DNA of 64,000 nucleotides from Prevotellaceae bacterium (GTDB lineage: Bacteria; Bacteroidota; Bacteroidia; Bacteroidales; UBA932): positions 1 to 64,000 of the forward strand of contig JAISFN010000091.1 of assembly GCA_031263585.1 (NCBI GenBank). The letters run 5' to 3'. The notes beneath the pieces are model-generated. The model searched no databases. It was not told the DNA's origin and saw only the letters and a program-made list of their open reading frames with translations. This document shows positions 1,984-63,980 of the stretch, piece after piece (the first letter of the stretch is position 1; each line of letters begins with the position of its first letter). Both the position numbers and the translations under genes were made by a program.

Positions 1984-3408
1984 ATGAAAAAAATATTTGG
2001 TATTACATCGCTTGTCGTTTCAATAGCGTTCTTTGTTGTATTCTGCGGTTGCAGTGAAAACTACAAACGTTATAAAGAAGTAAAGGAAAAAATGAGTTAC
2101 GGCACAGACGATGCTCGTAATGAAATGGATATTTATTACAAAGACATTCCGGGAAAGTTAAGGGAATTACGTTCAAAAATCGACTCTATGACTATGCTCC
2201 CCAGTATTCCTCAATCCTCCGATTATTACTTTGTCGGTTATACCTACTATGAATGGGCGGCAGACTTGTTCGATGAGTTCGGCGACTATAAGAATTCAAA
2301 GAAATTGGCTAAAAAAGCACGTTACCTTGCAGCCGTTTATTTCTACGAAAAAAATGGTGCTGTAAAAAAGGATGTTATAAAAAGAGGGAGCATGGATGCT
2401 TATCTAAACAGGGCTTATCGTCTCATGTTGAAAGCAGGCGAATATAAAGATGCTCCTGATAAAGCAATCGCATATTCTGCAATTATGTTAAAAAACACAC
2501 TTGATTTAGTTGTTAAAAATGGATACTACGGAAGGATATCAGTACTTTTTCGATCACTTGATGAAAAATCGAAAGAAATAAATGCTCATTTAATATATCA
2601 ATTAGTTGAGCCTAACTTCGCTGCAGAAAGCTGGAGTTACAAATCCCGTGTAAGAGACTTCTCTTACCTCCAAATGATTAAAGAATATCTACCTGTTTCA
2701 GATACGATACGCGAAAAAATGTATCGTGCAGCTATGGATATATTGAACTCTGATGGATTTTGGAAAGAAAAAACTTATTTTGAATTACAAGCAAATATAT
2801 TCGACTATTTCGGCGACTATAAAGATTCCAGGCAATGGCTTACAGCAAATATATTCGACTATCTCGGCGACTACAAAGATTCCAAGCAATGGCCTACACG
2901 TATCAAAGAGGCTAATAATTTTCCTATTTTAAGCGAAGAAAAATATGCCGCAAAAGCTGGCCAAACAGGTCGTGAAAAGCAAGCCCGAACGATTGTCATC
3001 GTGCTGTCTCACGATGGAATAGAGGACGAAAGTTCTATAAAATCAAATATAGAGATGAGCCTTGGCAAAAGACTGAAAGAGGAAACTAAAGGCAATATAT
3101 TTTTCACATATGAACCCGCAAAGGCCTGCGTTGTAATACACTACGAGAGAACTCATACATTTTATCGCACCTTTCAATATACCGGAGGGGTAACGGCTGA
3201 TTATTACCATACAAAAACGACTATGGAAATCAAAGCGGCAAATGGGAATGTATTGTGGAGTAAAACGATGAATAACAACATTAGGACGCCATTCAGTACA
3301 ATTGGAGGAGGTGCAAAGTATCGAAATATTTGTGCTCCTGCACCCGTCTATCATACTGAAGTATTAGAAATATTACAAAAGTATTTTGCAGAAATCGAAA
3401 ACAAGTAG
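1984..3408 (+). CDS. Lipoprotein with GDYKDS-type helical repeats
   Basis: The 474-residue product starts with a lipoprotein signal (MKKIFGITSLVV... to FCGC, Cys near 23), so it is probably anchored in an envelope membrane. Repeated helical units with the signature (L/F)GDYKDSxxW or GEYKDA occur at about 85-110, 145-170 and 260-310; such TPR-like units usually mediate protein contacts. Two adjacent copies at 2791-2898 are near-identical 18-residue duplications. The last third (about 330-474) looks like a separate globular domain, rich in beta strands, with a GGVTADYYHTKT stretch. I do not recognise a named family. The gene after it is a lipoprotein pseudogene in the same orientation. Confidence 0.75.
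   Translation: MKKIFGITSLVVSIAFFVVFCGCSENYKRYKEVKEKMSYGTDDARNEMDIYYKDIPGKLRELRSKIDSMTMLPSIPQSSDYYFVGYTYYEWAADLFDEFGDYKNSKKLAKKARYLAAVYFYEKNGAVKKDVIKRGSMDAYLNRAYRLMLKAGEYKDAPDKAIAYSAIMLKNTLDLVVKNGYYGRISVLFRSLDEKSKEINAHLIYQLVEPNFAAESWSYKSRVRDFSYLQMIKEYLPVSDTIREKMYRAAMDILNSDGFWKEKTYFELQANIFDYFGDYKDSRQWLTANIFDYLGDYKDSKQWPTRIKEANNFPILSEEKYAAKAGQTGREKQARTIVIVLSHDGIEDESSIKSNIEMSLGKRLKEETKGNIFFTYEPAKACVVIHYERTHTFYRTFQYTGGVTADYYHTKTTMEIKAANGNVLWSKTMNNNIRTPFSTIGGGAKYRNICAPAPVYHTEVLEILQKYFAEIENK
2791..2898 (+). repeat. Tandem 54-bp in-frame duplication
   Basis: Two copies, 2791-2844 and 2845-2898, differ at four positions. Each encodes 18 residues of the form ANIFDY(F/L)GDYKDS(R/K)QW(L/P)T. Because 54 is a multiple of three the frame is kept. 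This is a recent repeat expansion inside the lipoprotein gene. Confidence 0.9.
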
Positions 3409-57084: not shown

Positions 57085-58023
57085 CTAAAGGATTTTCCAA
57101 AAATTTTCGTCAAAAAGTTGAGCAATAGACTTATGTTTGACTGTTAGTAACATTGTTTTAGTCAAGGTTTCCTTGTTTTGCGGTAATTTTACTTTAACGC
57201 TTGTGATTGTCTTTGCAATGTCCAAAACCTTATCTACGCTTAATTTAATATTGTTAATTTTGAGTATTCATTCCAACTCTTTATAAATTTTGTATGCCAC
57301 AAAACATATACAAACGTGTGCTTCAATGCGCTTTTTCGTAAAATGGAACATAGAACGCAGCTCAAATGTGATTTTGGTAATTCTGAACGCCCTCTCAACT
57401 TGTCGTAATTCGCTGTATTGCTGATAAACATTACTTGCCGCGAGGTTCGTATTGGTAATATAGCCCTTTAATCAGTCCCATTTCCCGTTTTGTATCTTTT
57501 CTTTCTGTTCATCGTGCAATTTGTCCAATTAACGGTAATTTTTATGAAATTAAACGTCTTCACCAAAATACGATTTCAGGTAATCTGCTGTCACAACCTT
57601 ACTGCGAGGCTGACAAATACGGGATACTGCCAAATATTTTAAAATATCATCGTCTATCTTACCAAAACCGACCAAATTGAACATGGAATGAAATATCAAC
57701 TGCGAGCCATTGAGCAAAATATGCTTAATTATATTTAGTAAATATTCAACAACTTCTTCCTATTCCTCTCTGAGAGTGCATTCCATAAACGTATCCCGAT
57801 CGCCAAGCTGTAACGAAATCCATTCTTTGCCTTGTCGGCATAATTCTGCGATTACTTTTTCGCCCGAACTTACGCCTATGGTTTTCATATAACGTATCTT
57901 TCCGCTGCTTTTATCAATAATCACAACGCTTGTTGTTCCTGACTTGTTTTGTTTTTTGCATACATACACATATCGCAATGAAAACTCTTTTTTCTGCTTG
58001 CAACACCCAAAATGCTGTTGCAT
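57085..58023 (-). pseudogene. IS1634-family transposase with internal deletion
   Basis: The minus strand begins FGCCKQKKEFSLRYVYVCKK and IDKSSGKIRYMKTIGVSSG, the N-terminus of IS1634 transposases. After FGEDV and a stop it reads LDKLHDEQKEKIQNGKWD, then jumps to LKGYITNTNLAASNVYQQYS and LRQVERAFRITKITFELRSM near the C-terminus. The catalytic centre between them is deleted, and at least five stops interrupt the rest. It occupies the position beyond cas2 where type II-C loci often carry their CRISPR array. Confidence 0.85.
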
Positions 58024-58086
58024 AATTTATAAAATGTCGATTATACCAAATTACAAAACACGCTGCATAAAAATGTCAAAGTCAGG

Positions 58087-58112
58087 AAAAAGGGGAAGAC
58101 TCCCGCTTTTTC
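58087..58112 (-). terminator. Probable terminator of the cas operon
   Basis: AAAAAGGGGA and TCCCGCTTTTT surround the loop AGAC. On the minus strand the stem is followed by CCCCTTTTTCC. It lies just beyond the cas2 stop. Confidence 0.6.
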
Positions 58113-58117
58113 GTTTT

Positions 58118-59400: not shown

Positions 59401-62400
59401 CTAAACTTTTAAATTAACAATATACCCGAGCCTATTCATTACTACGAGTATACATGTTCCTTTCATTTCCGAATCACACTCTATTTTATTTATAGAACCA
59501 TATTCTTTTTTGTCAGCAATAATCTGTGCAATTGAATGAGGAACGACGTATAGACGCTTTGCTGCAAAGTTAACAACTTTATATATCCTACCTTTATTAT
59601 CTTCCACATCTTTTATATCTATATTTCCTTGCTCTAATTGTTCTTTGGTAGGCACATACACCAAATCGTTTGGCGAAAGAGTAAATAATAGCTTATCTCC
59701 TTTTTCGTTTTTTGAAGGAACTGCCATTTCGCCCCGTTTCAGGTTTTCTATAACGATATTTAATGGGACAGTTACAAAGTTCCGTTTGCCATCATCGGAC
59801 TGATAAACAGCAAAGAAAAGGTTTGTCCCTTGTGCCGCTTCTACATATTTATCTTTTTTATTGCCCTGTTCACCCATGTTAAACTTATTCCCGAGTATTT
59901 CCGATACTCTTACCTTATAAATAGGCTTATGGTACTTTCCATTGTTCAATAACCGGATATCTTCGTTCATTTTGTCGATACCCTCCGGCGAAAATGCATC
60001 TTCGGTATTTCCCTGATACCGGTCGAGGTGGCGAAGTAATATTTGCCGGATACCACTGTCCGTTACGGAATTGATATTTTTTACGGTAAAATTACTGTCT
60101 ACCGGTTTTCGGGTAGCTACTAACGGTTCTTTTTCATCGCTATAATAATAAATCTCTAATTTCGATATATCCTTTTGTGCATAAAGGTTGTCTAATTTTT
60201 TAAAATAAGCCTGTATCTGTTTTTTGTCAAACTTGTCGGTAACTAATTGTTTTATTTTTCCCCTGATTTCTTTATCAACTATCATCTTCCAGTTATCCAG
60301 TGCTATGGATAGGTTTACAAGTTTTTTAAATTGTAAATTAACTCTTCCATAAACAGTTTCTTTATGCAATGGTTTTCTGATGGCCCAATTCTCGCCTTTT
60401 GTTTGAGCTACAAATTTCTTTGTTCCATTTTCATATCTCTGGTATCTATTGGTCGACTTATTGATTACCCGGAGATTCTGTTTAAAACTGATTATAACAC
60501 CGGTTAATGCAGTTTGTGTGTCTTGCGTAAAAGTATCCCACGGTTTATTAAATAGCCATTTTCCTTGTTTGTTTTTCGAACATAGTTTCATTTTCAAGTC
60601 ATAACGGGTTTCCTTTTGAGAAGACTTTGCCGACTGGTTATTCAAATAATTGACATGGGAACGTGTTGTACAGGCAATAACAAGAGCATCCATGGCATGA
60701 TGACGGTGATCGATACGTTTTTTACTGAATCCCCGTTGGTTTTCTTCGGGTACTTGAATCTTGAACGTTTGTTTATCAACCCAATAGCCGTAATTGTTGG
60801 ATTTGGTCAATTCATTCAAGCGTTCGAAACGAGGTGTTATAATTTTATTCCAAATATCATTCAGCCCCCAATCCTCTTTTAATTTTGCAGTTACCGCACC
60901 TGTAACCGATATTATGTTTTTCGATGTGGCTTCCTGTTCATTCTCCTCTCTGACGATATTTGATAATAAGCCTTTTATATAGCGGCTGATATAGCGGGTA
61001 TCATTCATCTGCCGGTTGATAAAATCGTCCGGAATTTCGTCCATCAGCAATTTTTTCTTTTTCAAAAAGGAGTTCTTGAAATTCCGCTTTACAAAATTTT
61101 CATACTCGTCAAAAGTAAGAATAGGCACTTCTTGACCATTGCAATATACGGTTGTTCCATCTTTTTGCCGGATATACTCACAAGCCAGCATATTATTTTT
61201 TTCTCTATTAACAGCGCTTTCGCAAATTACTTTATTACTGAACGAATCATCGTAGTACCGGGCTTGCGGAATAATATGTTCCACGTCATAATCGCTTGTA
61301 AACAGTTTGCCAAGCGGAATAACCTTACCGGTATATGGGGAGCAATACCCTTGCTCTAACCAGCATTTGTAACGGATAATCTCGGAATGTGAAGGTTGTT
61401 TCTGTTTGATAATTTTTAGAATGTCATCCGGTATTTCGATATCGGAACCTAATGCCCCTTCTTCATAAATTTTCAGGCGTTCTTGTTGAGACATCGATTC
61501 GGGACGAACATCTATTCCTTGATTCTTTAACTCGGTAAGGATTGCCTTTATCCGAAGGTTGGTATTTTCGTTTTCTATATTTTTTGCGGTGAGTTGTTTT
61601 CTTTTTTCTGCCGGATTTTTCATCTCTCGCCCCAGTTCGATGTGTATTTCGGAAAGGTTGCCATATTCGGTCCAGATATCGCGTACAACTTTCAGCGTTT
61701 CCGTCACAACCTGCTCTACTATGGGGTTGCGGAGCGAATGTTGTTTAAAGTCTATCAAAAAATTGTCGATATCTTCAGGCGAGTTCCATTTTGCCGCTTC
61801 ACTTGCCTCCGAGTGGCGGTTATAAACAACATAACAAGCCAACCATAGCGGCAGTCCTTTAAACAATGAAATATTCAGCTCTTCTCCCAATTCTTGCTTA
61901 ACATTTTTTCTGGTTATGTCGCTGATATGCTTGTCATGTTCTCCATCAATTAGTTTGTTTATCCGGTCTTTGGTTTTTTCATCTATTTTTTCTTCGTTCC
62001 AATAATTGCCCCTCTGCATCAAAGGCAATAATTTTTTTATAGCCTTTGCTGAATAGGATGCGTAATCTTTGTTAAAAGGTTTTATTTTACAAAACTCTTC
62101 AACAAAGGGCTTTATGTTTGTCAGCCTATACCTGACGGCAAAGGATTCCAGCGCCTGTTTCAATTCACCTTCGTCATTAACCGAGTAAAGAATATGCCAT
62201 AAATGTTCTTCAACCTGTGGCGTAAGACAGCCGACATCGATACCGGCTTGTTTTAATCGGCTTATAAATTCGGCATGTGTAGGACATGCAGGCAATGTGC
62301 GGTCTCCATAATTCCACCTATAATCATCGTCTTTAAGTTTTGCTCCCTTAATTGCGGATAGGAAAGTTCCCTGTTTTATTTCCTTTTTCTCTTTCAACTT

Positions 62401-63801
62401 ATCGAATAATGCTACATAACTTTCTTCATCCGATAAATACGAACTGGTAATATCTGTTTCATTTTTTATAATCCTGACATTTTTCAGAAACTGCCATAGC
62501 CTGAATTCCTCGAACAGCGGGTGCGATTTAGAAATACATTTTATATGCTCTTTTTCAAATTTTCCCGTCTCAGGATTTTTGTACATCCTGTACTCATACT
62601 GGCAATTTTCTATCAACGATTTTTTGCTCTTTAACGGTCGTTGATAGAAAATAATATCATCGACGAAAAGGTATGTAAAATCTCGGTTTTGAATGCTATT
62701 GCGATACGTTCCATTATTTCTGTACAAATCGCTGATACAGGTATTATATAGTTTTGCATCATTTAATTCCGGGTGAAACTCTTTCTGTTTTGTTACTATC
62801 TGATAAAGTTCTTTCCGGTAAAATTTCCGTTCTATTGTTTGAATAAGCTTACCCTTTATTTTCTGGTCAGGATTGCTTAATAACGTATCATAGATGTAAG
62901 AACCCACCGGTTTGTGCGATTCGTCGATTTCTTTCTCTGTGCGTTTTTTTACTAAGTTCCAGTCGCCAGCTGTAGGAATACTGTACGACTTATTTCCGCT
63001 GGCTTTAAATGTTACAATAAATTCTTTTGTTCTGCCTTCCCAGTCAAGGGGCAGCCTGCTAAGCCTTTTATAGATGTCTCCGTTCTCAAGATGTACATGA
63101 TACCAAACGGCATCTCCCTTTTTATCTCCCGAATCTTCAACCTTGATAACTTTTATTACCTGATATTCTTTTGCTTCGTTAACGTCTTCTTCTTCGCCGC
63201 GTTGTTCATAATATCCGCGTTTTTGATTAAAATGCAGGAGTAGCCAGACTAGTTCTTCTTTCGTTATCTTTTGAGTTAATGCCTTTTTTCTCAAATAATA
63301 AATAGTCCAGTCGTAAGGTATTTTTTTCCCGTCTTTTACTAAATCGGGCTGATGTTTGGTAAAATCCTGCAACATTTCGGCAAAGGATTGTTTATAATAA
63401 AATTCCGGTTTAGCGGTTTCTTCATTTTTGTAATATGCTATTTTAGGCTCATTGCCGGATAAAAACTTTCCATGATTTTTTTCAAAATCAATACACTTTG
63501 TATAATGCTCAGGCAAAAAGCCGAGTATGTTCAGTATCCGGTGCAGGCGCTCTCTGCGTAACAGGTGCCGTTCGCGAAGGCGGCGTGCGCTGCGGTACCG
63601 GGTTCGTTCAGCTGTTTGCGATTTCAGATTTCCATTATCAAAATCACTTAACGCAGCGGCATCCATAGGTATAATACGACTACCTATACCCATAATCGCG
63701 GATGGGTGAAAGCTTCTACTTTCAATATCCTGCATGTAGCTTACCAATGCCCAGCCTATGGAATTTGTGCCTAAATCAAGACCTAATACATTCTTATTCA
63801 T
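59401..63801 (-). CDS. cas9: CRISPR-associated endonuclease Cas9, large type II-C form
   Basis: A 1466-residue Cas9, the RNA-guided DNA nuclease. RuvC-I is NVLGLDLGTNSIGWALV (D9). The Arg-rich bridge helix is TRYRSARRLRERHLLRRERL (67-86). RuvC-II is EIHIELGREMKN (E722), HNH is YDVEHIIPQARYYDDSFSNK with H842 and AVNREKNN (N865), and RuvC-III is DHRHHAMDALVIA (H1035, D1038). All catalytic residues are present and the frame is intact. The recognition lobe spans about 90-700 and the PAM-interacting region about 1100-1466. With only cas1 and cas2 beside it and no csn2 or cas4, the locus is II-C. Its length is at the long end, as in other Bacteroidota. It is divergent from the tracrRNA. Confidence 0.97.
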   Translation of the reverse strand: MNKNVLGLDLGTNSIGWALVSYMQDIESRSFHPSAIMGIGSRIIPMDAAALSDFDNGNLKSQTAERTRYRSARRLRERHLLRRERLHRILNILGFLPEHYTKCIDFEKNHGKFLSGNEPKIAYYKNEETAKPEFYYKQSFAEMLQDFTKHQPDLVKDGKKIPYDWTIYYLRKKALTQKITKEELVWLLLHFNQKRGYYEQRGEEEDVNEAKEYQVIKVIKVEDSGDKKGDAVWYHVHLENGDIYKRLSRLPLDWEGRTKEFIVTFKASGNKSYSIPTAGDWNLVKKRTEKEIDESHKPVGSYIYDTLLSNPDQKIKGKLIQTIERKFYRKELYQIVTKQKEFHPELNDAKLYNTCISDLYRNNGTYRNSIQNRDFTYLFVDDIIFYQRPLKSKKSLIENCQYEYRMYKNPETGKFEKEHIKCISKSHPLFEEFRLWQFLKNVRIIKNETDITSSYLSDEESYVALFDKLKEKKEIKQGTFLSAIKGAKLKDDDYRWNYGDRTLPACPTHAEFISRLKQAGIDVGCLTPQVEEHLWHILYSVNDEGELKQALESFAVRYRLTNIKPFVEEFCKIKPFNKDYASYSAKAIKKLLPLMQRGNYWNEEKIDEKTKDRINKLIDGEHDKHISDITRKNVKQELGEELNISLFKGLPLWLACYVVYNRHSEASEAAKWNSPEDIDNFLIDFKQHSLRNPIVEQVVTETLKVVRDIWTEYGNLSEIHIELGREMKNPAEKRKQLTAKNIENENTNLRIKAILTELKNQGIDVRPESMSQQERLKIYEEGALGSDIEIPDDILKIIKQKQPSHSEIIRYKCWLEQGYCSPYTGKVIPLGKLFTSDYDVEHIIPQARYYDDSFSNKVICESAVNREKNNMLACEYIRQKDGTTVYCNGQEVPILTFDEYENFVKRNFKNSFLKKKKLLMDEIPDDFINRQMNDTRYISRYIKGLLSNIVREENEQEATSKNIISVTGAVTAKLKEDWGLNDIWNKIITPRFERLNELTKSNNYGYWVDKQTFKIQVPEENQRGFSKKRIDHRHHAMDALVIACTTRSHVNYLNNQSAKSSQKETRYDLKMKLCSKNKQGKWLFNKPWDTFTQDTQTALTGVIISFKQNLRVINKSTNRYQRYENGTKKFVAQTKGENWAIRKPLHKETVYGRVNLQFKKLVNLSIALDNWKMIVDKEIRGKIKQLVTDKFDKKQIQAYFKKLDNLYAQKDISKLEIYYYSDEKEPLVATRKPVDSNFTVKNINSVTDSGIRQILLRHLDRYQGNTEDAFSPEGIDKMNEDIRLLNNGKYHKPIYKVRVSEILGNKFNMGEQGNKKDKYVEAAQGTNLFFAVYQSDDGKRNFVTVPLNIVIENLKRGEMAVPSKNEKGDKLLFTLSPNDLVYVPTKEQLEQGNIDIKDVEDNKGRIYKVVNFAAKRLYVVPHSIAQIIADKKEYGSINKIECDSEMKGTCILVVMNRLGYIVNLKV

Positions 63802-63840: not shown

Positions 63841-63872
63841 TTTGGATCTTAATATTATTAGATGTATATTTG
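63841..63872 (+). promoter_or_regulatory. Promoter of the tracrRNA
   Basis: TTTG at 63841-63844 and TATATTTG at 63865-63872, spaced by 20 bp, are a near-ideal Bacteroidota -33/-7 pair. The predicted transcription start is near 63879, at the beginning of the anti-repeat. Confidence 0.75.
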
Positions 63873-63878
63873 TAAAAT

Positions 63879-63980
63879 ATATTGAAAGCTAATCACAATA
63901 AGGATTATTCCGTTGTGAAACATTTAAGGCGGCGGGAAGCAATTCCCGTCTTCTTGACGGGAAGCAATTCCCGTTTTTTT
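63879..63980 (+). ncRNA. tracrRNA of the type II-C locus
   Basis: The anti-repeat region ATATTGAAAGCTAATCACAA (63879-63898) would pair with a crRNA repeat of the form TTGTGATTAGCTTTCAA, the usual II-C repeat pattern of Bacteroidota. It is followed by a nexus-like AAGGATTATTCCGTTGTGAA and TTTAAGGCGG. Two hairpins with the same sequence CGGGAAGCAATTCCCG end the RNA (63933-63948 and 63958-63973). The second is followed by T7, making a terminator. No CRISPR array is in the window, so the pairing cannot be verified here. Confidence 0.82.
63956..63980 (+). terminator. Rho-independent terminator of the tracrRNA
   Basis: The stem ACGGGAA/TTCCCGT with a GCAA loop runs directly into a T7 tract. Confidence 0.85.

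What the first reader, a model, noticed from the sequence alone, without database searches (positions are those of the whole stretch)
63879..63980. tracrRNA with a tandemly duplicated terminal hairpin
The sequence CGGGAAGCAATTCCCG occurs twice, 25 bp apart, and only the second copy is followed by T7. A perfect duplication of the last tracrRNA hairpin could affect Cas9 binding or leave a spare terminator. The RNA is divergent from cas9 and has a near-ideal own promoter.
Basis: seen in the sequence. Interest (0 to 1): 0.6.

Follow-up and report, generated by a model that had tools for sequence, protein, structure and literature searches.

The report
tracrRNA with a duplicated terminal hairpin
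The helper RNA of an otherwise ordinary bacterial CRISPR-Cas9 system has had its last hairpin copied once in tandem, so that the first copy most likely keeps its old structural place while the second now ends transcription; this is a real but probably minor, so far unique, variation.

Summary
Confirmed: CGGGAAGCAATTCCCG lies at 63933-63948 and 63958-63973 (25 nt start to start), and only the second copy is followed by T7. It sits in the tracrRNA of a type II-C cas9-cas1-cas2 locus, with a Bacteroidota-type promoter (TTTG-N20-TATATTTG) and an 18-bp match to CRISPR repeats found elsewhere in this genome. The unit is a 25-bp tandem duplication, 22/25 identical. All three differences are transitions in copy 2: one turns a G-U pair into A-U, two turn TCTTCTT into TTTTTTT. 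Relatives (two Dysgonomonas, 74-75% identical Cas9) have one hairpin with the same shape as copy 1, including its lower stem. Of 98 distinct tracrRNA tails analysed, this alone carries a tandem copy; the longest repeat elsewhere is 9 nt, against 17. Best reading: a recent tandem duplication. Copy 1 keeps the ancestral hairpin but not its run of U; copy 2 is now the terminator. So the first hairpin is not a spare terminator. An alternative fold (arm 2 with 3, arm 1 with 4) is about as stable on paper and leaves an attenuator-like switch open, without evidence. An ordinary tracrRNA with a lineage-specific twist; modest interest.

The parts
63841..63844 (+). -33 promoter element TTTG
   Evidence: read; 20 nt before the -7 element
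63865..63872 (+). -7 promoter element TATATTTG (Bacteroidota consensus TAnnTTTG)
   Evidence: a TAnnTTTG-like element lies upstream in 66 of 72 related tracrRNA loci
63880..63980 (+). inferred tracrRNA transcript, about 100 nt
   Evidence: start inferred from the promoter, end from the T7 run; fold z-score -5.5
63882..63899 (+). anti-repeat TTGAAAGCTAATCACAAT, pairs with the 5' 18 nt of the CRISPR repeat found on contigs C144 and C18
   Evidence: duplex -25.6 kcal/mol
63894..63917 (+). conserved core CACAATAAGGATTATTCCGTTGTG (nexus region) of Bacteroidota II-C tracrRNAs
   Evidence: exact match in 97 of 393 order, 65 of 399 family genomes; its last 18 nt in 41 of 395 class genomes
63926..63955 (+). 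hairpin 1 with lower stem AAGG...TCTT: the ancestral terminal hairpin
   Evidence: same shape as the single hairpin of L003 and L004
63931..63955 (+). copy 1 of the 25-bp unit GGCGGGAAGCAATTCCCGTCTTCTT
63956..63980 (+). copy 2 of the unit, GACGGGAAGCAATTCCCGTTTTTTT: hairpin 2 plus U run, the terminator
   Evidence: 22/25 identical to copy 1
59401..63801 (-). cas9, 1466 aa, full-length frame
   Evidence: TIGR01865, 421 bits
58462..59397 (-). cas1, type II
   Evidence: TIGR03639, 301 bits
58118..58513 (-). cas2 (the real start probably lies inside this longest frame)
   Evidence: TIGR01573, 68 bits, residues 31-121

Best explanation
This is the tracrRNA of a type II-C CRISPR-Cas9 system in which a 25-bp stretch (upper part of the terminal hairpin plus its 3' pyrimidine tract) was duplicated in tandem after the split from the Dysgonomonas-type relatives. 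Copy 1 still pairs its TCTTCTT tract with AAGGCGG and so forms the complete ancestral terminal hairpin, in the place where Cas9 would meet it. Copy 2 has three transitions that give a compact hairpin and an unbroken U7, and now ends transcription. Shown from sequence: the duplication, its differences and its absence in relatives. Inferred: transcript ends, read-through of hairpin 1, and that Cas9 tolerates the extra 3' hairpin, so that the net effect is near neutral or a slightly better-terminated RNA.
For: 17-nt exact repeat at 25-nt spacing, 22/25 identity with three transitions in copy 2. L003 and L004 (74-75% Cas9 identity) have one hairpin of the same dot-bracket shape followed by TCTTCTTTTTTT or TCCTCTTTTT. 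Both window copies share changes absent from L003/L004 (A-U to G-C pair, GUAA to GCAA loop), which places the duplication after that split. 98 distinct tails: only the window has a tandem copy. Terminator scan flags only copy 2. Folding growing chains forms hairpin 1 complete before copy 2 is made. Matching CRISPR repeats exist in the genome and cas9-cas1-cas2 are full-length frames.
Against: No RNA data, so neither end of the transcript is shown. One genome only (a draft of 202 contigs, 88% complete), the only one held of its genus, so fixation and age are unknown and a misassembly cannot be excluded outright, though 25 bp is shorter than a sequencing read. No CRISPR array remains beside cas2, so the activity of the system is uncertain.
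Confidence: 0.78

Rival explanations
1. Spare (backup) terminator: both hairpins terminate, and two in series insulate the downstream co-directional gene for glutaminyl-tRNA synthetase (starts about 120 nt after the T run) from tracrRNA transcription.
For: A glnS-like frame is co-directional and starts at about contig position 64103 (named from its sequence, no family search run on it); hairpin 1 is the homologue of the relatives' terminator.
Against: Hairpin 1 has no U run of its own and its pyrimidine tract is tied up in the lower stem; the scan does not call it. The gene seems to have its own promoter (TATCTTTG upstream).
Confidence: 0.1
2. Bistable, attenuator-like RNA: the two near-palindromic copies can instead pair arm 2 with arm 3 and arm 1 with arm 4, giving one long hairpin; a switch between the two folds tunes termination or Cas9 loading.
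For: Both folds have the same computed energy for the tail (-27.0 kcal/mol each) and about equal ensemble weight (0.48 against 0.44-0.52).
Against: Any perfect duplication of a hairpin creates this. Hairpin 1 forms first as the chain grows, and both folds end in a stem just before the U run, so termination should not differ. No conservation: single case.
Confidence: 0.04
3. Assembly artefact of a draft genome.
For: Draft of 202 contigs, single occurrence.
Against: The 25-bp unit is much shorter than reads; the copies differ at three sites that make structural sense; nothing else odd at the site.
Confidence: 0.03
4. Decay: the system has lost its adjacent array and the tracrRNA drifts without constraint.
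For: No array beside cas2, where decayed transposase-like sequence lies; one A fewer after the core (GTGAAAC for the usual GTGAAAAC).
Against: cas9, cas1 and cas2 are full-length; the anti-repeat still matches the repeats on C144 and C18 over 18 nt; promoter and core are intact.
Confidence: 0.05

Closest known systems
CRISPRCas_38, tracrRNA model of Bacteroidetes type II-C systems (PMC9067536)
   Same: By its description: mostly Bacteroidetes, type II-C only, typically intergenic within 100 bases upstream of cas9, with an anti-repeat.
   Different: No tandem copy of the terminal hairpin is mentioned in the passages read; the model itself was not available to search with.
tracrRNAs of Dysgonomonas sp. 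216 and 521 (L003, L004)
   Same: Anti-repeat TTGAAAGCTAATCACAAT and nexus core identical, terminal hairpin of the same shape with a GNRA loop.
   Different: One terminal hairpin, followed directly by its T run; GUAA loop and one A-U pair where the window has GCAA and G-C.
Guide RNAs with two 3' hairpins after the nexus, such as those of the S. pyogenes Cas9 clade (PMC7606464)
   Same: Two hairpins between nexus and poly-U.
   Different: There two hairpins are typical of the clade (that they differ in sequence is from general knowledge); here the second is a tandem copy seen in one genome.

Membership tests
Bacteroidota type II-C tracrRNA | anti-repeat complementary to the CRISPR repeat of the same genome | tested here: met
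   18-bp duplex, -25.6 kcal/mol, with the repeat on contigs C144 and C18
Bacteroidota type II-C tracrRNA | conserved core AAGGATTATTCCGTTGTG next to the anti-repeat | tested here: met
   exact at 63900-63917
Bacteroidota type II-C tracrRNA | own Bacteroidota-type promoter, divergent from cas9 | tested here: met
   TTTG-N20-TATATTTG at 63841-63872, cas9 on the other strand; transcription itself not tested
Bacteroidota type II-C tracrRNA | single terminal hairpin followed directly by a U run | tested here: not met
   Two tandem copies; the other tails have one hairpin before the T run. This is a regularity seen in the survey, not an accepted defining feature, so it is treated as variation within the family
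type II-C CRISPR-Cas locus | cas9, cas1, cas2 without csn2 or cas4 | tested here: met
   three genes in a row and no further cas-like long frame next to them
type II-C CRISPR-Cas locus | CRISPR array adjacent to the cas genes | tested here: not met
   none beside cas2; matching short arrays on other contigs. The locus is still II-C by its genes
RNA attenuator or switch | two mutually exclusive folds with different effect on termination | tested here: inconclusive
   two folds of equal energy, but both keep a stem before the U run; effect not testable here

The most novel reading that the evidence does not exclude
The tandem copies make a bistable tracrRNA 3' end, two hairpins or one long hairpin with arms 1:4 and 2:3, that changes RNA stability, termination or Cas9 loading: an attenuator-like control within a tracrRNA.
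Probability: 0.04. Interest if true: 0.55.

Novelty: new variant of a known kind. Interest (0 to 1): 0.22.

Why it matters
It shows that a tracrRNA can gain a 3' hairpin in one tandem duplication and that the two roles of the terminal hairpin, structural module and terminator, can be split between the copies. It offers a natural case for asking how much the 3' end of a II-C tracrRNA may vary. The biological consequence is probably small.

Tried and rejected
Rfam search of the window found nothing, so the RNA family was established by comparison instead. A scan of viral contigs for the exact double hairpin found none. Literature searches for duplicated or tandem-terminator tracrRNAs found no such report in the library searched. 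A search centred on the Dysgonomonas genome was not accepted by the tool, so relatives near L003 were not sampled further. Two other tails with a second predicted hairpin (L014, L123) were rejected as parallels: there it lies beyond the T run and has a different sequence. L008 gave three hairpins in a first count only because no T run was found to cut its tail at.

Full report
Observation. The sequence CGGGAAGCAATTCCCG occurs at 63933-63948 and 63958-63973, start to start 25 nt; the second copy is followed by T7. With the following T the exact repeat is 17 nt; in 3000 dinucleotide shuffles of the tail the longest repeat was 11 nt. The window holds two other short-spaced exact repeats of at least 15 nt (positions 2790 and 13132), and Tandem Repeats Finder lists other short arrays, so small tandem duplications as such are not unusual in this genome.

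Setting. The window is positions 1-64000 of a 66,218-base contig of a draft genome of 3.2 Mb in 202 contigs, the only genome held of its genus. On the minus strand lie cas9 (59401-63801, TIGR01865), cas1 (TIGR03639) and cas2 (TIGR01573). Divergent from cas9, a promoter TTTG-N20-TATATTTG (63841-63872) fits the Bacteroidota consensus (TAnnTTTG is named so in PMC10309648), and predicts a start near 63880. The anti-repeat at 63882-63899 pairs over 18 nt with the CRISPR repeat GTTGTGATTAGCTTTCAAAATTTTGTATATTGCACGAGGATATACAGC, present in short arrays on contigs C144 and C18 (duplex -25.6 kcal/mol). The nexus core that follows is exact. So the RNA is a tracrRNA by position, promoter, anti-repeat and core.

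Anatomy of the duplication. Aligned as 25-bp units, copy 1 is GGCGGGAAGCAATTCCCGTCTTCTT (63931-63955) and copy 2 is GACGGGAAGCAATTCCCGTTTTTTT (63956-63980); they differ at three positions, all transitions. Hairpin 1 also uses AAGG at 63926-63929 as the 5' side of a lower stem, pairing with TCTT. This is the same dot-bracket shape as the single hairpin of the two Dysgonomonas relatives L003 and L004, whose Cas9 is 74-75% identical. In those relatives TCTTCTT or TCCTCTT runs straight on into Ts; in the window the tract of copy 1 is followed by GACGGG, and only copy 2 has the U run. Both copies share a G-C pair and a GCAA loop where the relatives have A-U and GUAA, so the duplication came after that split (or the copies were made alike later). 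That copy 2 and not copy 1 is the changed copy is inferred from the relatives' tract.

Comparison. Exact-core searches matched 97 of 393 genomes of the order, 65 of 399 of the family and 41 of 395 of the class (these sets overlap). From the loci fetched, 98 distinct tails of this RNA were analysed: the longest direct repeat in any other is 9 nt, and no other has a second hairpin before its T run. The remaining listed matches were only read by eye in the tables (80 nt each) and showed no tandem copy; some matches were not listed. A survey by exact core misses divergent tracrRNAs.

Folding. The tail folds as two hairpins (-27.0 kcal/mol) or, at the same computed energy, as one long hairpin in which arm 2 pairs with arm 3 and arm 1 with arm 4; in the whole RNA the two have similar weight. 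The whole 101-nt RNA folds better than its shuffles (z -5.5). As the chain grows, hairpin 1 is complete before copy 2 exists, which favours the two-hairpin form; this is inference from equilibrium folds of prefixes, not kinetics.

How it most likely works. Transcription from about 63880 reads through hairpin 1, which lacks a U run, and ends after hairpin 2. The mature RNA then carries the usual terminal hairpin plus one extra hairpin at the 3' end. Whether Cas9 notices is unknown; two hairpins after the nexus are normal in other Cas9 clades (PMC7606464), which makes tolerance plausible.

Verdict. The closest described family by text is the Bacteroidetes II-C tracrRNA model CRISPRCas_38 (PMC9067536). 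The window's RNA is a single-genome variant of that kind.

Noticed in passing
window 57240-58117: Downstream of cas2, where L003 and L004 carry arrays (34 and 13 repeats counted), there is no array but short broken frames that look like a decayed transposase (no NCBIfam match for the one tested).
   Followed up: partly
L043 6331-6790 (contig C144) and L044 7910-8075 (contig C18): Short arrays with the cognate 48-nt repeat lie away from the cas genes; C144 also has a degenerate repeat and, before its first good repeat, a TATATTTG promoter-like leader.
   Followed up: partly
L044 7935-7961: One spacer contains a palindrome (TACGGAGTTCCGTA); no other copy of that stretch was found in this genome with up to 3 mismatches.
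   Followed up: yes
window 59401-63801: The Cas9 is closest to two Dysgonomonas proteins (74-75%), while the best in 200 genomes of its own family is 56% identical; exchange between families is possible.
   Followed up: no
window 63914-63921: GTGAAAC after the core, one A fewer than the GTGAAAAC of nearly all relatives.
   Followed up: no
window 2785-2898: A 54-bp tandem repeat of about two copies, the strongest tandem repeat in the window.
   Followed up: no
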